A DNA stretch of 64,000 bases from Haloarcula salinisoli (GTDB lineage: Archaea > Halobacteriota > Halobacteria > Halobacteriales > Haloarculaceae): the NCBI RefSeq assembly GCF_019599405.1, contig NZ_RKLQ01000005.1, positions 62,001 to 126,000 of the forward strand. The letters run 5' to 3'. Positions 47,035 to 62,780 of the stretch are shown one piece after another. The notes under the pieces were generated by a model that saw only the letters and a list, made by a program, of their open reading frames with translations, was not told the DNA's origin and did no database searches. The translations under genes and the position numbers were made by a program. Each line of letters begins with the position of its first letter. Within the stretch, counting starts at the first letter, position 1.

Positions 47035-47219
47035 GGTGAAAGCCCGGGAACGCAACGAAGTGAGTACCCCGGAACACAGCGACCAACGAGAGCGTCCTCG
47101 TTCCGGCGAGGGAGGGCGCGAGTGAGGGTTCTATAACAAAGTCAACTCTATAGCGCACCCGAGATTTACGAAACCAGTCTTATTTATCGACTGTCTGAGG
47201 TCCATAGTAGATATCCCGC

Positions 47220-47236
47220 ACGTGTTCGTCTGAAAC
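47220..47236 (-). repeat. Half of a degenerate CRISPR repeat
   Basis: GTTCGTCTGAAAC, the leader-proximal half of the repeat, preceded by unrelated bases; it lies 38 nt beyond the last full repeat. A worn trailer end. Confidence 0.5.
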
Positions 47237-47273
47237 GCAGGACATAGATGGTCCCCTGGCCGTGTTCGTAGAT

Positions 47274-50200
47274 GCTTCAACCCCACGAGGGTTCGTCTGA
47301 AACGAATTCCACATCACGTTTGTCCAAACTGCAATGATGGCTTCAACCCTACAAGGGTTCGTCTGAAACCATATTGCGCTGGGTATCCTTCGAGACTCGA
47401 TTAGCGCTTCAACCCTACAAGGGTTCGTCTGAAACACTATCCAGAATCCATGCATCGAGAGCACGTTCCAAGCTTCAACCCTACAAGGGTTCGTCTGAAA
47501 CTGGTGCGACGACTGCCAAAAGATAATCCCACACGGGGCTTCAACCCTACAAGGGTTCGTCTGAAACCCGGGAGCCTCAAAGAGGCCCAAGAACAGAAGT
47601 ACGGCTTCAACCCTACAAGGGTTCGTCTGAAACTCGAGGACGTCGACGACGAGCTTGTCCAGGCGACGGCTTCAACCCTACAAGGGTTCGTCTGAAACAA
47701 CCGAGTACGCCTATCGGGTTGTCGACGGCGTGGGGCTTCAACCCTACAAGGGTTCGTCTGAAACCGGAAGATGCGCACGCCGCGTGGCGACCTCACCGAG
47801 CTTCAACCCTACAAGGGTTCGTCTGAAACGCACATGGGCCGGTCGTGAGGCCTCCGGTGGATAATGCTTCAACCCTACAAGGGTTCGTCTGAAACCCGTT
47901 TTCCGAGTGGTTTGGTACGTGTTGATGCTCGCTTCAACCCTACAAGGGTTCGTCTGAAACGGTCGTCCCAGCCGCTGCCGCGACTCCATGACTCGCTTCA
48001 ACCCTACAAGGGTTCGTCTGAAACCAGTGTCTTCGTATCCGTCTGTGGTTATCTTGACCCGCTTCAACCCTACAAGGGTTCGTCTGAAACGCGGCTGATT
48101 GACGCGGACAAGCTGGTGGTCAACGCTTCAACCCTACAAGGGTTCGTCTGAAACAAAATACACACCGCTCCGCTGCCGCAGACTCCAGATGCTTCAACCC
48201 TACAAGGGTTCGTCTGAAACGCGTTGAGCGTCGTCTCGCCCGTCACACCGAGCGCTTCAACCCTACAAGGGTTCGTCTGAAACAACCAGTGACCTTCCCG
48301 TTGAAGCCGGCGACGACGTGCTTCAACCCTACAAGGGTTCGTCTGAAACTACCTGTGTCTCGAAGCCGCCGATAGTCTCGGGGATGCTTCAACCCTACAA
48401 GGGTTCGTCTGAAACCACCAAACCATCCAGTCGGCCCATGACGACCTGCCGGCTTCAACCCTACAAGGGTTCGTCTGAAACCCCATGATAATGTTCGTCA
48501 ATTTATCGCTTGACATTTGCTTCAACCCTACAAGGGTTCGTCTGAAACGCCCTGACCTTTATGGGTAGTGACGGCCTACCACGGCTTCAACCCTACAAGG
48601 GTTCGTCTGAAACTGGTGACGACGGCGATACCGTCTGGGGCAGCGACTCGCTTCAACCCTACAAGGGTTCGTCTGAAACTAGTCAGTCACGACCCGTCCA
48701 ACTCATAGCCGGGGCTTCAACCCTACAAGGGTTCGTCTGAAACCAGCCTTTCACTTAACCGCGAGCCGACGCCGGAGCGGCTTCAACCCTACAAGGGTTC
48801 GTCTGAAACCCGCATCGCCTCGTTCGCAAAAGCGTGATTGAACACGCTTCAACCCTACAAGGGTTCGTCTGAAACAAAGTCGCCGCGCCCGAACGGCTGG
48901 TCCGTCGAGTGCTTCAACCCTACAAGGGTTCGTCTGAAACTCTTCGTCGTATGCGTCGGCCCGAGCCAACATCTGCTTCAACCCTACAAGGGTTCGTCTG
49001 AAACCTGGTCGGTCCACTCAGACTTAGATTCGTTCAGCGAGCTTCAACCCTACAAGGGTTCGTCTGAAACTCGATATCTCCGAGCCCGGTCTCGTCCTCC
49101 AGCTCGCTTCAACCCTACAAGGGTTCGTCTGAAACAACAGCCCGATGTTGTTCTCGATGACCGCGTCGCGCTTCAACCCTACAAGGGTTCGTCTGAAACC
49201 CGCTGGTGTTGCCGATAACCGTCGTGAACGTCTGGCTTCAACCCTACAAGGGTTCGTCTGAAACGCGGTCCTCCGGCGCGATGATTTCGTCTTTGTGCTT
49301 CAACCCTACAAGGGTTCGTCTGAAACGAGCGTCTCACTGCCGACGGAATTCCCGTTCAGGTAGCTTCAACCCTACAAGGGTTCGTCTGAAACTTTGTGGC
49401 CGAGTATACGGCACCGAACCAACCCGGCTTCAACCCTACAAGGGTTCGTCTGAAACATCGGGTACTCCGGGGTCGGGGTGGACTCCGGTAATGCTTCAAC
49501 CCTACAAGGGTTCGTCTGAAACGCGAGGGGAATATGACGGTCTCGGGCGACCCCGGAGCGCTTCAACCCTACAAGGGTTCGTCTGAAACGTACTGTCCAC
49601 GGCGGCGTCGGTGTTGCCACGGACGCTTCAACCCTACAAGGGTTCGTCTGAAACACGTCCCGCGCCCGATTCGGACCTGTCCGTCAAACGTGCTTCAACC
49701 CTACAAGGGTTCGTCTGAAACATACTTGACGTCCTCGTCACCGAGGCAAACAACGAGCTTCAACCCTACAAGGGTTCGTCTGAAACTTGTAGCCCCACAG
49801 ATGCCCACGCGACGGGATGCGGCTTCAACCCTACAAGGGTTCGTCTGAAACATCGATATAACACTGGCTTCGGATGACCAGGTCTTCGCTTCAACCCTAC
49901 AAGGGTTCGTCTGAAACGTTCCCGCCTTTCTGGCCACGCTCGACGGGCTCGGTGCTTCAACCCTACAAGGGTTCGTCTGAAACGAAGTTGCCGATGCCAC
50001 CACCGAACTGCTCAACGGGCGCTTCAACCCTACAAGGGTTCGTCTGAAACATCTCGTCCGTCTCCCGGCCGAGGTAGTTGTCGCGGCTTCAACCCTACAA
50101 GGGTTCGTCTGAAACACGGTAGCAACAGCGTTCAACATTTGAATATCGGTGGCTTCAACCCTACAAGGGTTCGTCTGAAACAGCCTGTCGACGACGTAAC

Positions 50201-53200
50201 CCGGGTTCACGAGGTCGGCTTCAACCCTACAAGGGTTCGTCTGAAACGCTCATCGCTTCCTCCGTTTGTATTCGGTTGCTTTCGCTTCAACCCTACAAGG
50301 GTTCGTCTGAAACACGTAAGCGCTGCATACGGCTAAAACGTTGCTCCGGCTTCAACCCTACAAGGGTTCGTCTGAAACACTCCCACGACGGTCGATGGTG
50401 ATATTGAGTCGGGTGCTTCAACCCTACAAGGGTTCGTCTGAAACTCGGGTTAGCGTGAGCATATGTTATATTTTCACCCGCTTCAACCCTACAAGGGTTC
50501 GTCTGAAACCCAGTCCAGAAGCAGCGGGAGCGACAGACCCGACAGCGGCTTCAACCCTACAAGGGTTCGTCTGAAACGGAGCGCGGTACCAACCGCGACC
50601 TTCTCGCCGTCCTCGCTTCAACCCTACAAGGGTTCGTCTGAAACTACCAACACGGGACGTTTCCATCAGGTCCGTCCGCATGCTTCAACCCTACAAGGGT
50701 TCGTCTGAAACGGGAGCCGCCGCCCTGAACGACCACAGACGACCCCTGCTTCAACCCTACAAGGGTTCGTCTGAAACCATACGTCTCCAGCGCCTCGCCT
50801 TCGATTTCGAGGCTTCAACCCTACAAGGGTTCGTCTGAAACGCGCAGACGAGACCGACCGCTGTCGTCGCAGTTCCGCTTCAACCCTACAAGGGTTCGTC
50901 TGAAACGTCCCCACCGAAGCTGTCGACGTCGTGCCACCGCATGCTTCAACCCTACAAGGGTTCGTCTGAAACTGTTCTCGGATATCGGGGGTGTTGGTTC
51001 GTGGCTAGCTTCAACCCTACAAGGGTTCGTCTGAAACACTATTTTGTCTTGGACTCGTGATACACGGCTCAGGCTTCAACCCTACAAGGGTTCGTCTGAA
51101 ACCGTCTTCTCGGCGATACGCGGCGGCTCGTTTGCGCTGCTTCAACCCTACAAGGGTTCGTCTGAAACTACCTCAAAATCATCAACGTCGACCTGACCGA
51201 CGCGCTTCAACCCTACAAGGGTTCGTCTGAAACACCGTGGTCGCGGTCGTCATGAACCGCATGAGCCTCGCTTCAACCCTACAAGGGTTCGTCTGAAACG
51301 ATCCGCTCTCGCTGAGCCTCGATCATGAGATGCTCCGGCTTCAACCCTACAAGGGTTCGTCTGAAACGAGTACGGTCGCCGGCGCCGGGAGCCCTTTCGG
51401 CGCTTCAACCCTACAAGGGTTCGTCTGAAACACGGCCACGGGTCACTGGGGATGTTGGGCCACGAGCTTCAACCCTACAAGGGTTCGTCTGAAACGGCGC
51501 TCGCGGAGCTAGGCGGCGTGGTCGATATCGAGGCTTCAACCCTACAAGGGTTCGTCTGAAACGATATCTGCGCTCCATGTCCCGTCTCCGTTGTCGGTGC
51601 TTCAACCCTACAAGGGTTCGTCTGAAACCCGCGCTCTGGTCGTTGTAGATAGCGTTCGTGTTGCTTCAACCCTACAAGGGTTCGTCTGAAACGCAAGAGG
51701 CAATCACGGCCCGCCGGGAGGACTGACTGCTTCAACCCTACAAGGGTTCGTCTGAAACGGGTCGTTCCGGCCCGATTCGCTCCACTGGTCGGGGCTTCAA
51801 CCCTACAAGGGTTCGTCTGAAACGCCAACACGGGACGTTTCCATCAGGTCCGTTCGCATGCTTCAACCCTACAAGGGTTCGTCTGAAACAAGTTGCCGAT
51901 GCCACCACCGAACTGCTCAACGGGCGCTTCAACCCTACAAGGGTTCGTCTGAAACAGTCGGCCGCGGCCTCGCGTGGGAGCGCTTGCTCAAGGCTTCAAC
52001 CCTACAAGGGTTCGTCTGAAACGTGGTTTTTGTGCAACCGAACTCGTCGGCCATTTCCTGCTTCAACCCTACAAGGGTTCGTCTGAAACCCACTGGTAGC
52101 TGATGACCAGCGACTGGCCGTCTGGCTTCAACCCTACAAGGGTTCGTCTGAAACCGCCGCAGTGTTCGCACTCCCATGCCGGTGGGTCGCTTCAACCCTA
52201 CAAGGGTTCGTCTGAAACTTCAGCAGAGACAGCGGCTCCGGGGGCGTGTCCGCAGCTTCAACCCTACAAGGGTTCGTCTGAAACGGCCACGGAAGTAATC
52301 CACAGGTTCACTGGCCAATCGCTTCAACCCTACAAGGGTTCGTCTGAAACTCCTCGTTCTCCTCAGAGTCGGCAGTCTGCTTCAGCTTCAACCCTACAAG
52401 GGTTCGTCTGAAACTGCAAGCTCTGAACTCCGACAGGACCGACAGGACAGCTTCAACCCTACAAGGGTTCGTCTGAAACTCTCTTCTCTAAGTTTTTCTG
52501 GAGTGTCAGAGCGGACGCTTCAACCCTACAAGGGTTCGTCTGAAACGAGCGTATCTCAGACGCCTACCAACAGGTCAGTCTGCTTCAACCCTACAAGGGT
52601 TCGTCTGAAACCGCGGCGTCTCACCGCGCGCATGGTCCGCTCGCTTGCTTCAACCCTACAAGGGTTCGTCTGAAACCCGACTGCCGGGGTCCGCCGACGG
52701 GTGGTAAATGTGCTTCAACCCTACAAGGGTTCGTCTGAAACGAGATTATGACCGACGGCGGACAGATGCAAAAACCAGCTTCAACCCTACAAGGGTTCGT
52801 CTGAAACGTCAGGCAGCGTAAACGAGTGGTCATGCAACCAGTCGCTTCAACCCTACAAGGGTTCGTCTGAAACGGGTGGCGAGTACGTACACCGTCGAAG
52901 TCGGGTAGGCTTCAACCCTACAAGGGTTCGTCTGAAACTAGGTTTGCGGGTCGGCCTGTGGGACCAACTGAGCGCTTCAACCCTACAAGGGTTCGTCTGA
53001 AACGGACGACGCAATCGTGTTGCCTAAGGTCGCTTCGTCGGGCTTCAACCCTACAAGGGTTCGTCTGAAACCGCGTTTCGTGGAGATATCGTTGCCCGGC
53101 TTCTGGCTTCAACCCTACAAGGGTTCGTCTGAAACGACGTAGCCGAGGATGGCCGCGAGGATGAGTGCGCTTCAACCCTACAAGGGTTCGTCTGAAACAT

Positions 53201-53394
53201 TCTTGCGGACCTTGAGGCAGTCGGGATTCCGATGGCTTCAACCCTACAAGGGTTCGTCTGAAACCGACGCCTACGCGAAGGTGCGGGCGATGCACCGGGA
53301 GCTTCAACCCTACAAGGGTTCGTCTGAAACAGATGACCGCGCCCGCAGTCATGCCGACCAACAAGCTTCAACCCTACAAGGGTTCGTCTGAAAC
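47274..53394 (-). CRISPR. CRISPR array, about 94 repeats, type I-B
   Basis: Thirty-base repeats; on the transcribed (minus) strand they begin GTTTCAGACGAACCC and end GGGTTGAAGC. My manual count is 94 repeats and 93 spacers of about 34-39 bases. The repeat is essentially invariant except the one at 47274-47303, which has two changes, marking the old trailer end. The leader is therefore at the high-coordinate side, beside cas2. Two spacers occur twice in nearly the same form (49984 and 51890; 50645 and 51824). No cas-independent interruption is seen. Confidence 0.98.
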
Positions 53395-53499
53395 CATGCC
53401 CAACATACGGGCTATAGGCATGCTAACGGCGGGTCACAGTAAAGCCCTTCCGTCGACCATCAATAGTGCGTGTTCCCCAGGGGGGTTGATGGAATCCGA
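53395..53499 (-). promoter_or_regulatory. CRISPR leader
   Basis: The 105 bp between cas2 and the first repeat. It is unusually short. It contains CCTATAGCCCG (TATA-like) about 20 nt before the first repeat and an imperfect palindrome GCATGCC...GGGCATG reaching the repeat edge; both may serve transcription and spacer integration. Confidence 0.6.
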
Positions 53500-53760
53500 C
53501 TATAGAAACCGTTGATTCTCCGTTGGGTCTTCCCCATAGACGGTTCGATTGAGTAGCGTATCAGAAGACAGCTCGTAGATGATTGTTGATTCACCGGGTT
53601 TCAGCAAATCATCGATCTCGTTTTTGAGCTTGGACAAATCGCCCTCTGAAATTTCCCCTTCAAGAACCGAGTTCTGTACGTGAGTTAGATACCGCCGGCC
53701 GATTTTGAGGGCTTTCTGCGTTCTGTCGGCTTCCAGGTCATAGACCATCACAACGTACAT
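53500..53760 (-). CDS. cas2: Cas2
   Basis: 86 residues from MYVVMVYDLEADRTQKALKI, with the conserved Asp at the end of strand 1 (YDLE). Ferredoxin-like fold; forms the integration complex with Cas1. It starts 1 nt after the cas1 stop and is the last gene of the operon, next to the leader. Confidence 0.95.
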   Translation of the reverse strand: MYVVMVYDLEADRTQKALKIGRRYLTHVQNSVLEGEISEGDLSKLKNEIDDLLKPGESTIIYELSSDTLLNRTVYGEDPTENQRFL

Positions 53761-53761
53761 T

Positions 53762-54757
53762 TCACCACCACCGTTGGAACGGATCGTATTCTTCACCGGT
53801 GAGCAAGTGTTTTTTCAGCTTGTATGCCTCGAGCCGCATCAGATACTGGTAACTCACCTTTCGGTTGAGCGTCGGATGTTCAACAGTACGCTCAAGCGTC
53901 TCTTCGAACGCCTTTGTGTACGTTTTCCGCCCAGATTCGTTCAGTAAACACGAGCCGAGCTCCGTCTCGAAATCGGTATCCGAAATCTGGTTTCGGTTTA
54001 CCAGCCGGAACAGGACACGGTCGGCAAGGACGGGTTTGAACAGGTCGGCGAGATCGAGCGATAGCGAGTAGCGCCGCTCGCCCGGCTCGTGGAGGTAGCT
54101 AATCGTCGGGTCGAGTGCAGTAGCACGGATTGCCGAGACGCAGTTCGCATAGACCAGCGAATTACCGAACGAAATGAGGCTGTTAATCTCGTTGGGCGGT
54201 GGGTTGTACTCTCGCTGGCTCAGCTGAAACTCGCTTGGGAGAATCTCATTAAAACTCCGGTAGTATGCCTTTCTCGCAGTGGCTTCGGTTCCCAGTAACT
54301 CATCGACGGGCAACTCCTTATCAACGCGTGCGGCCGCAGCTTCGAGCTCCTCGATAATGTCGTCGAGATCGTGATCGCGGCCGTTGTAATAGACCACGTT
54401 CGTCCGCATATTGTGAATGCTGCCCCGCACAATTGCCGCGGCGAGTTGCCGTCGGTGCTGGCTATCCTCGTAGGCCCGGACCTGATTGACGACTGTCTTC
54501 CCCGATGTTTGTCCGCGTTTCGGCATCACCGACCCCGAGTAGTAATCCTCCCAGCCGAACACGTGGAGTGCGACCGTGCGGTCGTTGAGAAACGACATCA
54601 GCCGCGTGTTGAAATCGATCTGGCCGTGAAGGAAGAACGCCTCGGCGTTCTCGATTGGGATGTACTGCTTTTCTCCACCATCGTCGGGGACGAGCCTGAG
54701 CGTGTCGTCGCTGCGTTCGAGTCGGCCGTCGGAAAAGACGTGGTAATTTCGATCCAT
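53762..54757 (-). CDS. cas1: Cas1 integrase
   Basis: 331 residues from MDRNYHVFSD; the longer frame overlaps cas4. Metal ligands visible: Glu158 (GTEATARKAYY), His223 (YLHEPG) and Asp235/Asp238 (LSLDLADLFKP). All required residues are intact. It inserts new spacers at the leader end. Confidence 0.95.
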   Translation of the reverse strand: MDRNYHVFSDGRLERSDDTLRLVPDDGGEKQYIPIENAEAFFLHGQIDFNTRLMSFLNDRTVALHVFGWEDYYSGSVMPKRGQTSGKTVVNQVRAYEDSQHRRQLAAAIVRGSIHNMRTNVVYYNGRDHDLDDIIEELEAAAARVDKELPVDELLGTEATARKAYYRSFNEILPSEFQLSQREYNPPPNEINSLISFGNSLVYANCVSAIRATALDPTISYLHEPGERRYSLSLDLADLFKPVLADRVLFRLVNRNQISDTDFETELGSCLLNESGRKTYTKAFEETLERTVEHPTLNRKVSYQYLMRLEAYKLKKHLLTGEEYDPFQRWW

Positions 54758-54759
54758 TG

Positions 54760-55308
54760 TTAACACCAACAGAAGTCGTGGTACGCACACGAATCGCAGA
54801 ACGGTTTCTCCTCTGCCGGCGGCGGCGAGGACTGGCTGACAATCTCATGGATGCCACCAATCGCGGTTTCGACCTTGTCCTTTCGCTCCGCTGTAAGTAC
54901 AACCGGCTCGCGTTTTCGCTCCCGTGGGTGAGCCAAGACGCCGTCTCGCTGGATATCGGCGACGCGGTCGAGATACCAGAGGTAGTACGACAGCTGCATC
55001 TCGGCCGGTTCGGTGAGAGTCGAGGAGGGTTTGACCTCAACGACGCGGCCGTCGTCTAGCAAATCAAGTGATATCATTCCGAGATTGAGGTTCTCGCGTT
55101 TGTCACTGTAGGCCGTCTCGTCGACGCGGGTGCCACGGACAACAGTAGCGTTCTCACGGTCGATTTCGAGGTTTCGACTTTCGAACCAGAGTTCGCGTTC
55201 GCAGACGTAGTAGTACTGGACCATCACGCCAGTCACGCGAAACGGCTCGTCGACCGGCTCACCGCGAGCGGTTGCGAGGAGGCGGTCGACTGGATCAGCG
55301 GCAGTCAT
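54760..55308 (-). CDS. cas4: Cas4 nuclease
   Basis: 182 residues. Iron-sulfur cluster ligands: Cys36 (YYYVCERELWF) and the C-terminal group Cys171, Cys174, Cys180. The RecB-like nuclease core includes ISLDLLDDGRVVEVKPSSTL. Cas4 trims and orients prespacers. Overlaps cas3 by 4 nt. Confidence 0.95.
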   Translation of the reverse strand: MTAADPVDRLLATARGEPVDEPFRVTGVMVQYYYVCERELWFESRNLEIDRENATVVRGTRVDETAYSDKRENLNLGMISLDLLDDGRVVEVKPSSTLTEPAEMQLSYYLWYLDRVADIQRDGVLAHPRERKREPVVLTAERKDKVETAIGGIHEIVSQSSPPPAEEKPFCDSCAYHDFCWC

Positions 55309-57935
55309 AAAATCCGCCTCTCAGCAGTGCTATCCGGGATTACGAATCCTGTATTCTCATCGAAATACTCACTCAATCCATGTTTACGAACATCAAGACA
55401 TAGCACGTCCGTGTCAGAGTGGACTGGATTCAGCTGACCGAGCTTGTCTCTTTTATCAGACTCGCCGTGGTAGATAGGAATCGACACACGCGTCTCCTTG
55501 AGTTCATCCATCAGCCGACGGACGCGGTCGAACTCATAGAGGTTCCACGCTTCGCGTACCTGTTCTACCTGCTCCCGTTCGGCTACGGTTCGACAGATGA
55601 TAATGTCCACTGCATTACGCTGATCGATCAGTGATAGCTCTCCGAGTTTGTCTCCGCGGACGTCGTCGACATACTCAGCGTACTCCTGTTTGCCGACATT
55701 CTTGTCTGTGTGTAGTGTTTTGTAGTATTCCCTGACTGCTGTACGGGCCACAGCGGTCTCGGAGAGTGGTTCATCTTCTTCACGAACTGCATCGAGGGTT
55801 TCCGCCGCGACAGGAAGAAGTGTCGCTCCTCGGTTGTAGACCGCTTCTGCAGGCGTCTTTTGCTGCTCCTCTGGTACGTCAAGCCACCAGACAATGACGC
55901 GTCCCTGTTCTCGCTCGAACGACCGGTTACAGCGACCGGCTGCCTGAACGATACTGTCGATTGGGGCCAGATCACGGTAGACACGGTCGAAGCTAATATC
56001 GACACCAGCTTCGATCAGCTGTGTCGAGACCGTGATGAGGCCATGTCCGTCGTCGGTGAGTTCCTTTGCGGTTTCAATCAGTTTGAGACGATCCACAGGA
56101 CGGAGTCGTGTCGAGAGGTGGAGCACCGACCGGTCGCTCCGCTCTTCGACTCGGCTCGCAAGCGTCTTCGGATTGATGTCAGCTGTCGTTTCGACTTTGC
56201 TGAGTTCGTCAGCGTAGATATCTCCGACACTGGGTAGCAAGTCCGCATTGTCGGTGAGTTCGTCAAAGAGGGCCCGGGCACTATCGATTGTGTTACAGAC
56301 TGCAAGCGTTGACCCACCGGAATCAACTGCAGTTAGCAGTTCTATTCCCGCATCGGCGTATGATTTCGGGGTTTCTTGCGTTTCGATATACCTCTCGGTC
56401 GACTCATCGAGTTCGTACTGTACGCGCTCGGTCGCCTCAAAGTAGACATCAGGATCGTTGACGAGCTCAGTCACGTCCTCTCCTCTCTCGGTTGCTTCAT
56501 CGAACAGCTGTGGCTGAGTTGCGGTCATAGCAATAACCGTTGCGCCGTACTGTTCGGTCAGTATTGCAACGAGCCGGGGGACGAGCTTCCACCAGTCGAG
56601 TGGCAAGCTCTGTGGCTCATCAAGGATGACCACGCTATTTCGGAGAGCGGGAATCTTCATCGACTGCTTGTTAGCTGGCCCAGCAAGACTCTCGAACAAC
56701 TGCACGAACGTCGTGACTGTGAGGCCGGCCCGCCAACTTTCGGCGAGCATCCCGGCGACATCGTCGTTCTTGTCCGCATCGTCAGCGTCTATATCGTCGT
56801 CGACGATCTTGGTTTCTGAAAGGTGGTGGTGAGCACTAAGTAATCGTCCGAATGTGTCAGCCTCGTAGATGTCTTCAACCTCATCGACGACCTGATCGAT
56901 GATACTGGTAAACGGAAGTGCGTAGACGACCCTCTCGCCATCAAGTTCGTCACGAACCGTCTGTGCGGCCGACAACCCGGAGAGCGTCTTTCCCATTCCC
57001 GTTGGCAGGGTAAGTGTCGCTACGCCCCCGCCAGCTTCGGCAAACTCTTTCGCGTTCTCTACGACAGCGGACCGTGCACGTGAACGATAGTGGTTGAGTC
57101 GTTCCGTTCTAGAACCGTCCGAGTCAGCGGGCGAAGACGCTTCGAGTTCTGCCACGTATTCGTCCAACACCTGGAACGACGGCTGCTTTGCTTCGTAGGT
57201 CGAATCCGAGTCAGTCTCCTCACTACGACTTGCTGCACTCGTCTTGTCTGCAAGCACAAGCGATCCCCATATTTCGAGGGCTAGTCCATAACAAGACTCT
57301 GACAACGACTCTCGATTGATTGTCGTTCCACTCTCCGTGGCAACAGCACCGGCGATTTCATCGAGGAGGTCTTTGTATGAGTGGCGAAATCCGTCCCACG
57401 AACCATCGCTATCAGTGGCATCATCGAAAATATCGGCCGCCAGCTCCGAAACGTGTTCTTCGATATCGTTGAGCTGCATAGCGATTGCTGCCTGTAGCTG
57501 TTCATCGTTGGTCTGTGCCCCTCCACTTGAGTTCTCTGAGTTGTACGCACGATTATAGATGTACTGCGTCACATCGGGAAGTTGCCCATGATGTTTGGCG
57601 ACTGCGACGAAGCCAGCCAGACAGGTCTCTGTTTCAAACCCCTGTGCGTCGAGGGCATAGTACCCACCGAACGACCCGATTGGGGCATGATATCGACACG
57701 GCTTGTGCTCGGGTTCGGTGCCATGTCTAAGGTACTCCTGAAAGAAGGTCGTTGCTTTCCCGAAGTCGTGAACGTAGGCGAGCGTCTCAACGACCTGCTG
57801 TAGCGACTCATCATCAGATGTTGTCGCTTCATCGGGAACGATTTCGCTGGCCCGTCGGGCAACATCATCCAGATGATTGTGAAGATAAACACCCTCGTAG
57901 CCGTCTTCGGGTGGATGAGAGTATACAGGCATCAA
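55305..57935 (-). CDS. cas3: Cas3 helicase-nuclease
   Basis: 876 residues. HD nuclease at the N-terminus (His19/His21, His56-Asp57 in VHDFGK), helicase motif I LPTGMGKT at 310-317, motif II LDEPQ at 438-442, motif VI QAAGRCNR. It degrades DNA bound by Cascade. Overlaps cas5 by 4 nt. Fused HD and helicase, no sign of damage. Confidence 0.95.
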   Translation of the reverse strand: MMPVYSHPPEDGYEGVYLHNHLDDVARRASEIVPDEATTSDDESLQQVVETLAYVHDFGKATTFFQEYLRHGTEPEHKPCRYHAPIGSFGGYYALDAQGFETETCLAGFVAVAKHHGQLPDVTQYIYNRAYNSENSSGGAQTNDEQLQAAIAMQLNDIEEHVSELAADIFDDATDSDGSWDGFRHSYKDLLDEIAGAVATESGTTINRESLSESCYGLALEIWGSLVLADKTSAASRSEETDSDSTYEAKQPSFQVLDEYVAELEASSPADSDGSRTERLNHYRSRARSAVVENAKEFAEAGGGVATLTLPTGMGKTLSGLSAAQTVRDELDGERVVYALPFTSIIDQVVDEVEDIYEADTFGRLLSAHHHLSETKIVDDDIDADDADKNDDVAGMLAESWRAGLTVTTFVQLFESLAGPANKQSMKIPALRNSVVILDEPQSLPLDWWKLVPRLVAILTEQYGATVIAMTATQPQLFDEATERGEDVTELVNDPDVYFEATERVQYELDESTERYIETQETPKSYADAGIELLTAVDSGGSTLAVCNTIDSARALFDELTDNADLLPSVGDIYADELSKVETTADINPKTLASRVEERSDRSVLHLSTRLRPVDRLKLIETAKELTDDGHGLITVSTQLIEAGVDISFDRVYRDLAPIDSIVQAAGRCNRSFEREQGRVIVWWLDVPEEQQKTPAEAVYNRGATLLPVAAETLDAVREEDEPLSETAVARTAVREYYKTLHTDKNVGKQEYAEYVDDVRGDKLGELSLIDQRNAVDIIICRTVAEREQVEQVREAWNLYEFDRVRRLMDELKETRVSIPIYHGESDKRDKLGQLNPVHSDTDVLCLDVRKHGLSEYFDENTGFVIPDSTAERRIL

Positions 57936-58729
57936 ACAAACACCACGGTTCGACCGTCGACACTGACTGCTGTCGTGTCTCGCACCTCAAGCGAATCAGC
58001 GTCGGGATTGTAGGCGTAGTTTGTGAATCCCGTTGTCGTACGACCACCGGCATCAGAATCCATGAACGCGGGTGACTCCTCAATCTGACAGCGTGTTCCT
58101 GAATCCAGAACGATATTGTCAACGGCATTCGGGACAGCTGAATCAATTTCCACAGTATCGGTCTGTGGTCCGTCCCCAACATCGAATTCACCGTGATACT
58201 CGATGTCAGCGAGATGCTCCGAAAGGCCAAGACTCGGGACGTAGTGCGATTCGCCTGCGGCGAGCGTCTCGCGCAGTCCGGTATACCACTGCTCGTTGGC
58301 AAGTGCGACATCGATTCGATAAGCAGGATCAACCAGTACCTCGTAGTTATGTTGCTGCCGGAGCGTCGTCGGATCAGGTAGCTTGACGCTGATTTTTCCA
58401 CGGCCGTTAAGCGACTGCAAGTCTCCCGCTGCAGTTGACAGCGTGTTCATCGGCATATTGACCGTCCTGATCTCTCGAACAGGTTCGATGGCGACTGCCG
58501 AACTATCGGGCGCGAACAGGTCGTAGTAGCCATCCCGTTCAATCCCGAGGACAGCTGCGAGGAGCCCAGCAACGGTAGTGCGGGGAATAATTCGATAGGT
58601 TTGCTTGACGATATTCCCCTCAATCCGTCGGAAGTGACCCCACGGGCCACGCACCGTAAACGAGAGACAGCGATCAGGCTGGCCGCCGTTTCGGTCGGCC
58701 GTCCAATCGTCCAGCGATTGTTGCGACAT
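57932..58729 (-). CDS. cas5: Cas5 (type I-B)
   Basis: 265 residues with the RAMP start LSFTVRGPWGHFRRIEGNIV and YRIIPRTTVAGLLAAVLGIE, a Cas5 signature. Caps the 5' handle of crRNA in Cascade. Starts 2 nt after cas7. Confidence 0.95.
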   Translation of the reverse strand: MSQQSLDDWTADRNGGQPDRCLSFTVRGPWGHFRRIEGNIVKQTYRIIPRTTVAGLLAAVLGIERDGYYDLFAPDSSAVAIEPVREIRTVNMPMNTLSTAAGDLQSLNGRGKISVKLPDPTTLRQQHNYEVLVDPAYRIDVALANEQWYTGLRETLAAGESHYVPSLGLSEHLADIEYHGEFDVGDGPQTDTVEIDSAVPNAVDNIVLDSGTRCQIEESPAFMDSDAGGRTTTGFTNYAYNPDADSLEVRDTTAVSVDGRTVVFV

Positions 58730-59815: not shown

Positions 59816-61978
59816 TTAGTGTTCCTCCTCGGAAATTGAATCGTTAGCATCGGTTTCGTCTCGGTTCCACGGGTGGTCGTTCATCCCGTACGTCACGCCA
59901 AGAGCGTAGTAGAAGCGGAGATCGTCGGTTTCGATCTCCCACTCTTCCGGTTCAGGATTGAGAATCGTATCACGAAGCCGGTCGACGATGTGATCCGCCT
60001 TCGTGCCAGGGTAGTTCCCCTGTTGTTTCTTTTCCTGACGCGTGTAGGTCAGCGTCTTGGCGACGGTTTCCTGTGTCACCTTCTTGATTCGGGAGCGAGT
60101 GATCGATTTGACTGGGTACTGATCTACGAGTGTCGTCGACCGATCCTCGCTGTACTCCTGATAGCTGCCGATGTCGCCGACGAGCGCGCCAAGCAGGAAC
60201 GCCCCCCTGCGTTGGCTCGTCACGGAGTCCGGGTCGTCGTCGTTAGCTGGCGACAATGCGGGTGTTTCGCTGATGAACGACTCGAGTTTCGGTGCGGCGG
60301 GGTGGCCCCCGTCCGCGATTGTGATTTCATCTAGTGATGGCATGGTGTCTCTATCATACTCCGGTTGCTGGGTAATCTGGTTTTTTGAAGGGTCGGTCGT
60401 CTGCAACAGCTTGAGATCGTCATCCGCAAGCACGCAGAGTTGAGCGAACTGACTGGCAACGAGGAACGAGGGGAATCCTTCGTGCTCACTGTCATCGGTC
60501 TGTTCGTCAATAATCCGGTTCACGTACTCTTCGAGCAGCACATCGACAGCTACCGCTTCACCACTCAACACGCTGATGAGAGCTTCGATTCGCGGATCGT
60601 CAGCATCAGCGTCGTCGTCATCACGTTCGGCGAAGGTCTGTCTGAAATACCAGCCAGTCGAGACTGTGTGTAACTGCCCGTCGTTCGTTTCAAGCAGTCC
60701 CCAGTTTTGGTTAGTTGGGAGTGGTGCTGTCCAGTCCGTGTAGTGGTCCCTATTGAACGCCGAGACGGTTTGGACGAACTCGTTGTGCGTGATTGCGAGT
60801 TGCTTCGGATAGTGGAGCCGGCCGTTCAGCGTCTCGCCAAACACGTCGTATCGAGACATCTGATGCGGCATCACGGCCGATACGTAGAACCGGAAATCCT
60901 GCTCTTGAAGGGTTTTTCGCCGTTCTTCTCTATACGCGTCCTCGATTGGTGTCGTCTCTTCGTCTTCGACAGTCCGATAGAGCAATTCGTATAATCGATA
61001 AACCTTCTCAGGAGCCAGTCGACCGAATACGTATGGAAGGTAGTATACCTTCGCGCCGAACGTCCGATAGGTACAGGCCTCAACGAACGTGTCGGCGTTC
61101 ATTACTGTGATTGCGGCATCCTCTGAAATCGGATGTGACCGCCACGCCTCTTCGATGTTGAGTCCAGGGAACTTCTCAAGTTGCTTGCCGAGAAAGTAAT
61201 TTTGCGGGTCTTCGGACGTACCAACGGTTCGAGCTGGCGAGCCCGTGACGAGATCAGTCGCGTCCCCGGATGAGTCATCCGCCTTGTTTTTGGTGACGAG
61301 TTTCGAGAGTTTCCGCTGCCGCATGGCCTCACGGAACACGTCTATGTCACCGGGCCACTGGTACTCGCCATCAGGTTCCGTTTTCACCTGCACAGTCAGC
61401 AGCGCGGTTGTCGACTCACCACCCAGTTTTCGTGCGAGCGTGTCTGCAATCGTGTCCAGTGCAGCCTCGTTTTCGCTGAGTTCAGCAAGCCGTTCGATAA
61501 TCCAACCTTCAGGATGTTCCCCGGCTGCTTCGGTGACCACATCGTCAGTGGCCCATTTGGTGAGCCGTTCTTTCGCATAGCGGGCTAGTTTCTCCGGATC
61601 GCTGTTTCGCCCAGCCTGATGTGTCACACTGTGATCAATTCCGCGAGCGGCCGGATACTTACAGTGACCGACCTGTTGAATCAGGTCGCCAGTGTATCTC
61701 GTCACCTGTACCGAGCCGAGTTTGTCATCAGCCAGTCGCGGGTCATCACCGGACACGTCAACCCGAACCACAATTAAGCTACTATCAGTGTCAACGAGAT
61801 CACCAGCAGCGTCGGGTGTGAGATACGGAGCATACTCGCCGCCGCCTGTCGTAGCTAGCGTATAGAGTTTCCCATAGAGGTACTGGAGATCACGTAACGA
61901 GCCGATTGGCGACTCCGGAAGCTCTGCTTCCAATTCATCGGGCGGGTACTTCTCGCGGAACGTGTCAGGTGAAAGCAT
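59816..61978 (-). CDS. cas8b: Cas8b, large Cascade subunit
   Basis: 720 residues, the signature protein of type I-B. Contains VTHQAGRNSDPEKLARYAKE and VYYLPYVFGRLAPEKVYRLY. It recognises the PAM in Cascade. Overlaps cas6 by 14 nt. Confidence 0.9.
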   Translation of the reverse strand: MLSPDTFREKYPPDELEAELPESPIGSLRDLQYLYGKLYTLATTGGGEYAPYLTPDAAGDLVDTDSSLIVVRVDVSGDDPRLADDKLGSVQVTRYTGDLIQQVGHCKYPAARGIDHSVTHQAGRNSDPEKLARYAKERLTKWATDDVVTEAAGEHPEGWIIERLAELSENEAALDTIADTLARKLGGESTTALLTVQVKTEPDGEYQWPGDIDVFREAMRQRKLSKLVTKNKADDSSGDATDLVTGSPARTVGTSEDPQNYFLGKQLEKFPGLNIEEAWRSHPISEDAAITVMNADTFVEACTYRTFGAKVYYLPYVFGRLAPEKVYRLYELLYRTVEDEETTPIEDAYREERRKTLQEQDFRFYVSAVMPHQMSRYDVFGETLNGRLHYPKQLAITHNEFVQTVSAFNRDHYTDWTAPLPTNQNWGLLETNDGQLHTVSTGWYFRQTFAERDDDDADADDPRIEALISVLSGEAVAVDVLLEEYVNRIIDEQTDDSEHEGFPSFLVASQFAQLCVLADDDLKLLQTTDPSKNQITQQPEYDRDTMPSLDEITIADGGHPAAPKLESFISETPALSPANDDDPDSVTSQRRGAFLLGALVGDIGSYQEYSEDRSTTLVDQYPVKSITRSRIKKVTQETVAKTLTYTRQEKKQQGNYPGTKADHIVDRLRDTILNPEPEEWEIETDDLRFYYALGVTYGMNDHPWNRDETDANDSISEEEH

Positions 61979-62780
61979 CTCTACCCTCCAGTTCGCTCTT
62001 GCCCGGCGGCGTTTTGTCCGTGATATTCACGAACCCAAGCCCCAGCGAATTCCGCTCACCGAGTCCGCAGTCCAGCGCGAGGTTTAGGTGTCGACGGTGG
62101 TGATCGTCCTGCACCGTATACTCGAACTTCCACTTGCTCAGGACGTAGGTCATCTCCTGACCCTCGGTAACGGTCACCGGAACGGCGAAGGTCTTGATGA
62201 GTTCGTAGCCGTCGAACAGATCGCCGTCGACATCGCTCGGCCCAGGCAGGTGGTCGTGGGCGAAGCGGTCATGTTTCTGATCGAGATTGTCCTCCAACTG
62301 CTTCCGGAGCGGTGCCATCGAATGCTTCGGGCGCCAGAACACGGCGGTTTCGCCACCGGGATGGTCGATACCGTACTCCTCGCATCTCCACGGTGGAATC
62401 CGAACCAGGAGGCCGGTCCCGGTTTCAATCGTCCCGCGTGTGCCGGGTTCGCCGACATCGGGGGATAGCGACGTGATATCGTCGACGTAAAACGGCATTT
62501 CGCCGATATTCAGTTCCGGTTCCTCGAGCAAGTCAGCAGCGACCTGTGCCAGTAACTCTTCTTCCGGCGAAGCAACCAACAGCTTCCGGTCATCCCCTGC
62601 TTCCATATCATGGGGAGGAAACGGATTGGAGTAAGCGAACCCTGGAGGCTCGCCGTCGTCGTGACGTCGATCGTACTTGGTGTCGGCGAGCGCGTCCCAG
62701 AGTCGGCCACGAAGCTTGTGATGGTAATCGTTCTGATAGGCTGTATCCGCGCGTGCCGACAAATGGGCCATTACACGCAC
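61965..62780 (-). CDS. cas6: Cas6 crRNA endonuclease
   Basis: 271 residues from a GTG at 62780. The catalytic His is among NDYHHKLRGRLWDAL (20-21), and the Gly-rich loop GLGERNSLGLGF lies near the C-terminus. It cuts within the repeat, leaving the usual 8-nt handle (predicted ATTGAAGC type; here GTTGAAGC). First gene of the operon. Confidence 0.95.
   Translation of the reverse strand: MRVMAHLSARADTAYQNDYHHKLRGRLWDALADTKYDRRHDDGEPPGFAYSNPFPPHDMEAGDDRKLLVASPEEELLAQVAADLLEEPELNIGEMPFYVDDITSLSPDVGEPGTRGTIETGTGLLVRIPPWRCEEYGIDHPGGETAVFWRPKHSMAPLRKQLEDNLDQKHDRFAHDHLPGPSDVDGDLFDGYELIKTFAVPVTVTEGQEMTYVLSKWKFEYTVQDDHHRRHLNLALDCGLGERNSLGLGFVNITDKTPPGKSELEGRDAFT

What the first reader, a model, noticed from the sequence alone, without database searches (positions are those of the whole stretch)
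49984..51925. Two pairs of near-identical spacers, the newer pair adjacent
Seen: spacer 49984-50020 equals 51890-51925 except for one extra 5' G. Spacer 50645-50681 equals 51824-51859 except at the 5' bases and one internal C/T change. The leader is at 53.4 kb, so the adjacent pair at 51.82-51.93 kb is younger, and the order of the pair is reversed relative to the older copies, ruling out a simple block duplication. Inference: renewed acquisition from one virus or plasmid lineage, one protospacer carrying a change; primed adaptation or a strong acquisition hot spot could explain it.
Basis: partly seen in the sequence, partly recalled or inferred. Interest (0 to 1): 0.6.

Follow-up and report, generated by a model that had tools for sequence, protein, structure and literature searches.

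The report
Same viral targets recorded twice
A salt-loving archaeon's CRISPR immune memory contains two pairs of near-identical entries, whose fixed front ends and one-letter-different back ends show they were captured on separate occasions from the same sites of a returning invader; this turns out to be common in related archaea.

Summary
The window holds one type I-B CRISPR array of 93 spacers (47274-53394, read on the minus strand) beside a Haloarcula hispanica-like cas operon, with the leader at 53395-53500. Spacers 23 and 52 (A) share 36 nt and differ only by one extra base on the older copy. Spacers 24 and 42 (B) differ at positions 6 and 36 and by one base in length. No other of the 4278 spacer pairs exceeds shuffled controls.

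In both pairs the 5' (PAM-side) ends coincide and only the 3' (PAM-distal) end moves. I surveyed 3125 spacers from 60 other haloarchaeal genomes with the same repeat family. Isolated non-adjacent repeat pairs, the window's two included, have equal length in 8/34, as expected for independent captures (25%), and all 26 unequal-length ones share the PAM-side end. Adjacent duplicates have equal length in 10/11. So the window's pairs are independent re-acquisitions, not duplications.

The A copy is identical to its older version and B's internal change lies at the non-pairing position 6, so this is not a record of viral escape. Acquisition from an already-matched target fits best. No protospacer was found, so a single source virus is unproven. 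Ordinary biology, with a useful diagnostic signature.

The parts
47274..53394 (-). Type I-B CRISPR array: 94 repeats (crRNA sense GTTTCAGACGAACCCTTGTAGGGTTGAAGC), 93 spacers of 32-38 nt
   Evidence: the leader-distal repeat at 47274-47303 carries 2 changes, all others are identical
53395..53500 (-). Leader of the array
   Evidence: closely similar to leaders of H. hispanica N601 (L148) and Haloarcula argentinensis (L161) between cas2 and the first repeat
51890..51925 (-). Spacer 23 = newer copy of A (36 nt)
   Evidence: identical to the first 36 nt of spacer 52
51824..51859 (-). Spacer 24 = newer copy of B (36 nt)
   Evidence: differs from spacer 42 at positions 6 and 36
50645..50681 (-). Spacer 42 = older copy of B (37 nt)
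49984..50020 (-). Spacer 52 = older copy of A (37 nt)
53500..53796 (-). cas2
   Evidence: 98-aa ORF directly after cas1 and before the leader; identified by position and by synteny with H. hispanica cas2
53762..54790 (-). cas1
   Evidence: PF01867, E 2.5e-85; 92.8% identical to H. hispanica N601 Cas1b
54760..55308 (-). cas4
   Evidence: PF01930, E 8e-48
55305..57935 (-). cas3
   Evidence: Cas3 HD, DEAD and C-terminal domains
57932..58729 (-). cas5
   Evidence: PF09704
58732..59850 (-). cas7
   Evidence: PF05107, E 9e-48
59816..61978 (-). cas8b
   Evidence: PF09484; 91.8% identical to H. hispanica N601 Cas8b
61965..62780 (-). cas6
   Evidence: PF01881

Best explanation
The two pairs are independent re-acquisitions by an active H. 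hispanica-type I-B adaptation machinery. SHOWN: in both pairs the PAM-side (5') end is the same nucleotide and the PAM-distal (3') end differs by one; the order is inverted and the flanking spacers differ, so no segment was copied; in other haloarchaeal arrays, isolated repeat pairs behave like independent draws while adjacent duplicates do not. INFERRED: each time the same element (or a close relative) came back, the adaptation complex docked on the same PAM and cut the far end with its usual jitter of 1 nt or more, giving 37 nt once and 36 nt the next time. The newer B and A were added one after the other, probably in one infection. Because the older A spacer matches the newer one perfectly and the older B mismatches it internally only at position 6, the incoming DNA was probably already recognised by existing crRNAs. 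Cascade-Cas3 degradation or priming at those or other sites then fed fragments to Cas1-Cas2-Cas4 (interference-driven acquisition) rather than responding to an escape mutant.
For: Pair geometry. Survey of 3125 spacers from 60 genomes plus the window: 34 isolated non-adjacent pairs, equal length in 8 (expected 0.247; binomial p = 1.0), all 26 unequal pairs share the 5' end; adjacent pairs have equal length in 10/11; Fisher p = 1.2e-4. Within-genome repeat pairs are about 97 times more frequent per comparison than cross-genome pairs, as expected if the same local elements return. Cas8b and Cas1 are 92-93% identical to H. hispanica and the leader is conserved. In H. hispanica adaptation needs a priming spacer, uses PAM TTC, and continues despite immunity (PMC3936756). 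Variant spacer lengths arise mainly from imprecise PAM-distal cuts in type I-F (PMC5059440). Position 6 need not pair (PMC4390866). The two newer copies are adjacent: about 2% by chance.
Against: No protospacer was found, so the PAM, strand and shared origin of A and B are untested. The priming requirement is transferred from H. hispanica, not tested here. A length difference of 1 nt in only two pairs would be weak evidence without the survey.
Confidence: 0.82

Rival explanations
1. Array-internal duplication (replication slippage or unequal recombination between repeats) copied spacers and later small mutations made them differ.
For: Duplication does occur in this family: 10 of 11 adjacent pairs have equal length and no mismatch, and two more adjacent equal-length pairs were seen in Haloarcula relatives.
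Against: The window pairs are 17 and 28 spacers apart, in inverted order, with different neighbours, and both differ in length at the same (3') end. A copied unit would keep its length and neighbours. All 26 unequal pairs change only at the 3' end; with either end equally likely, p is about 1.5e-8.
Confidence: 0.04
2. Chimeric array: the leader-proximal and leader-distal parts came from two strains that had each sampled the same virus, joined by recombination within repeats.
For: Would also give PAM-anchored, length-jittered copies; haloarchaea exchange DNA by mating (own knowledge). Cross-genome shared targets also show fixed 5' ends in 7/8 pairs.
Against: All repeats inside the array are identical, with no internal degenerate end-repeat marking a junction. 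Cross-genome sharing is about 97-fold rarer than within-genome sharing.
Confidence: 0.08
3. Escape-driven priming: the virus mutated in protospacer B, escaped spacer 42, and the mismatched crRNA primed acquisition of the corrected spacer.
For: B differs between the copies, and the related H. hispanica system is known for priming (PMC3936756).
Against: The internal change is at position 6, not required for pairing (PMC4390866); position 36 is the last base. A was re-acquired unchanged. In the survey, mismatches are not concentrated in the seed (4 of 21) and 24/34 pairs are perfect.
Confidence: 0.1
4. Assembly artefact from repetitive DNA.
For: Arrays are hard to assemble, and no reads were available.
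Against: The copies differ from each other in length and sequence and have different neighbours; the array lies inside one 212 kb contig.
Confidence: 0.02

Closest known systems
[quoted passage not shown] Li et al., PMC3936756)
   Same: Cas8b 91.8% and Cas1 92.8% identical; same gene order from cas8b to cas2, closely similar leader, same repeat family.
   Different: H. hispanica has 12 spacers here, the window 93. PAM and priming are not testable in the window. No spacers are shared.
Interference-driven ('targeted') spacer acquisition, Staals et al. 2016 (type I-F, PMC5059440)
   Same: Spacer gain from targets already matched by existing spacers; variant lengths come mainly from the PAM-distal cut.
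   Different: Different subtype, laboratory plasmids, recent events; here it is an inferred natural record.
Spacer size heterogeneity in I-B CRISPR (Li et al. 2017, doi 10.1093/nar/gkx229; not held, content from own knowledge, citation seen)
   Same: Length variation at the PAM-distal end and a C bias at the third base from the 3' end; the survey shows 41% C there against 31% background.
   Different: That was a laboratory assay. The window alone (39% C, n = 93) is too small to be conclusive.
Reacquisition class in SpacerPlacer (PMC11472070)
   Same: The concept of a spacer gained a second time.
   Different: That study merges spacers differing by one edit and classifies 695 of 805 repeats as duplications and 8 as reacquisitions. 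Here, end geometry in single genomes points mostly to reacquisition.

Membership tests
H. hispanica-type I-B CRISPR-Cas | cas6-cas8b-cas7-cas5-cas3-cas4-cas1-cas2 operon | tested here: met
   (cas2 by position and synteny)
H. hispanica-type I-B CRISPR-Cas | Conserved leader between cas2 and the first repeat | tested here: met
H. hispanica-type I-B CRISPR-Cas | TTC PAM at protospacers | not testable with these tools
   no protospacer of A or B found
H. hispanica-type I-B CRISPR-Cas | Acquisition requires a priming spacer | not testable with these tools
   needs an infection assay; known for the 92-93% identical system (PMC3936756)
H. hispanica-type I-B CRISPR-Cas | C bias at the third base from the spacer 3' end | tested here: inconclusive
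   window 39% against 30% background (n = 93); survey 41% against 31% (n = 3125)
Independent re-acquisition of a spacer | Same PAM-side end, variable PAM-distal end | tested here: met
   both window pairs; 26/26 unequal pairs overall
Independent re-acquisition of a spacer | Copies isolated, neighbours not shared | tested here: met
Tandem or block spacer duplication | Copies of equal length, adjacent or in collinear blocks | tested here: not met
   lengths 36/37, inverted order, 17 and 28 spacers apart
Escape-driven priming | Older spacer mismatches the newer target at PAM or seed | tested here: not met
   A perfect; B differs at 6 and 36 only. The PAM part is not testable without a protospacer

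The most novel reading that the evidence does not exclude
In haloarchaeal I-B arrays, most non-adjacent repeated spacers are true re-acquisitions, mostly from targets the cell already matched perfectly. If so, published reconstructions that merge near-identical spacers and call them duplications undercount re-acquisition, and spacer end geometry in a single genome can separate the two processes.
Probability: 0.5. Interest if true: 0.5.

Novelty: new member of a known kind. Interest (0 to 1): 0.33.

Why it matters
The pair itself is ordinary, but its end geometry is a simple fingerprint. Equal-length adjacent copies mean duplication; isolated copies with a fixed PAM-side end and a jittering far end mean the same site was captured again. 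Applied across genomes, this lets natural arrays show how often hosts meet the same element again and whether they keep adding spacers from targets they already recognise.

Tried and rejected
Protospacer searches, all without a convincing hit: A+B in phages and plasmids, chance-level matches only; spacers 1-71 in phages at E <= 0.1, none; A and B with up to 3 mismatches in 392 genomes of the order, only the array itself; degenerate or 20-21-mer patterns in IMG/VR, where the three 20-mer hits (L146, L147, L165) matched only 24-27 of 37 nt of A overall and were taken as chance; one degenerate frame of A in GTDB contigs, none. L165 lies in an ORF reading IVEQFGGGIGG, like one frame of A; kept only as a weak lead. 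The best haloarchaeal hit in the plasmid collection (Natrinema, H35) matches 25/36, rejected as chance. B's two differences are both third-codon positions in one frame (MRTDLMETSRVG), but differences 30 nt apart always share codon phase, so this is weak. Both also fall at multiples of six (the bases flipped out in Cascade, own knowledge), but survey mismatches show no such enrichment (3 of 21).

Full report
What is there. The window carries a complete type I-B cas operon (cas6-8b-7-5-3-4-1-2, minus strand, 62780 to 53500), a leader (53395-53500) and one array of 94 repeats and 93 spacers (53394 down to 47274). The array holds the only copies of this repeat in the genome. The system is a close relative of the experimentally studied Haloarcula hispanica I-B system: Cas8b 91.8% and Cas1 92.8% identical to plasmid pHH126 of strain N601, same gene order from cas8b to cas2, closely similar leader. 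This fixes the polarity: newest spacers are at 53.3 kb, oldest at 47.3 kb, where the only variant repeat sits.

The observation. Counting from the leader, spacers 23 and 52 (A) and spacers 24 and 42 (B) are the only near-identical pairs among 4278; every other pair scores no better than shuffled spacers. In crRNA sense A2 is the first 36 nt of the 37-nt A1. B2 (36 nt) and B1 (37 nt) differ at position 6 and at position 36. In both pairs the 5' end, next to the PAM in type I systems, coincides and the 3' end moves by one base. The order A2-B2-B1-A1 and the unrelated neighbours exclude a copied block.

A test against duplication. I collected 115 loci with the same repeat family from the GTDB-based genome collection, giving 3125 spacers from 60 genomes, and listed every near-identical pair allowing any end offset up to 14 nt. 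Adjacent pairs have equal length in 10 of 11 cases, the signature of unit duplication. Isolated non-adjacent pairs, the window's two included, have equal length in 8 of 34 cases, which is the 25% expected if two lengths are drawn independently; all 26 unequal pairs share the 5' end (Fisher p = 1.2e-4 between classes). Three pairs that were block duplicates or contig-end overlaps were set aside. In one genome the same site is held three times, at 36, 35 and 34 nt. Thirteen of 31 genomes with at least 30 spacers, counting the window, have at least one such pair. The window's pairs are therefore typical re-acquisitions. A caveat: the genomes are not phylogenetically independent and some arrays are cut at 8 kb stretch borders, which can hide neighbours.

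Mechanism. In H. hispanica, adaptation needs Cas1, Cas2, Cas4, Cas3 and at least part of Cascade plus a pre-existing spacer; 94% of new spacers have a TTC PAM; and acquisition continues in already immune cells (PMC3936756). In type I-F, variant spacer lengths come mostly from imprecision of the PAM-distal cut (PMC5059440). That is the geometry seen here. The newer A copy is perfectly matched by the older one and the newer B copy differs internally only at position 6, which need not pair in the haloarchaeal I-B seed (PMC4390866). So the existing spacers should have recognised the returning DNA. This argues for acquisition fed by interference, or by priming elsewhere on the element, and against an escape-mutant story. 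In the survey too, 24 of 34 pairs are perfect and mismatches do not concentrate in the seed. What remains inferred: that the older spacers were functional, that A and B lie on one element, and that spacers 23 and 24 came from one infection (adjacent placement has about 2% chance probability).

The source. No protospacer of A or B was found in phages, plasmids, IMG/VR patterns, 392 genomes of the order, or GTDB contigs (one frame of A). Spacer 20 matches 31/35 an Ig-domain tail-protein gene in a same-genus genome, so at least one other spacer points to a tailed virus or provirus.

Relation to what is known. Re-acquisition is an accepted event class, but a large reconstruction that merges spacers differing by one edit assigned 695 of 805 repeated spacers to duplication and 8 to reacquisition (PMC11472070). 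The haloarchaeal data here suggest that spacer end geometry would change that balance, at least in this family. The datasets and definitions differ, so this is a lead, not a contradiction.

Verdict. Observation confirmed; re-acquisition supported; single source virus unproven; escape reading not supported. Ordinary biology of a known system with a useful diagnostic.

Noticed in passing
window 52090-52124; L026 1501-1533: Spacer 20 matches 31/35 nt of a gene in a same-genus genome whose product matches phrog_18315 and phrog_807 (major tail protein with Ig-like domain), suggesting a tailed provirus target.
   Followed up: partly
window 61965-62780 and 59816-61978: cas6 and cas8b open reading frames overlap, leaving no room for a CreTA toxin-antitoxin module between them as reported for H. 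hispanica (the latter from own knowledge).
   Followed up: no
window 50051-50085; L027, L028: Spacer 51 has 28-29/35 nt similarity to places in two family genomes, possibly a conserved target gene.
   Followed up: no
L125 5224-5650 (Halalkalirubrum salinum): The same protospacer is recorded three times at intervals of three spacers, with lengths 36, 35 and 34 nt and identical 5' ends.
   Followed up: partly
L056 (Halarchaeum rubridurum): Two adjacent spacers are each repeated elsewhere in the array at separate positions with different lengths, mirroring the window's pattern.
   Followed up: partly
L111 and L127 (Haloferax denitrificans, Halonotius roseus): Adjacent equal-length exact spacer duplicates, three in the Halonotius array, as expected from slippage.
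   Followed up: no
window 47203-47303: Degenerate half-repeats beyond the last repeat mark the old, decayed end of the array.
   Followed up: no
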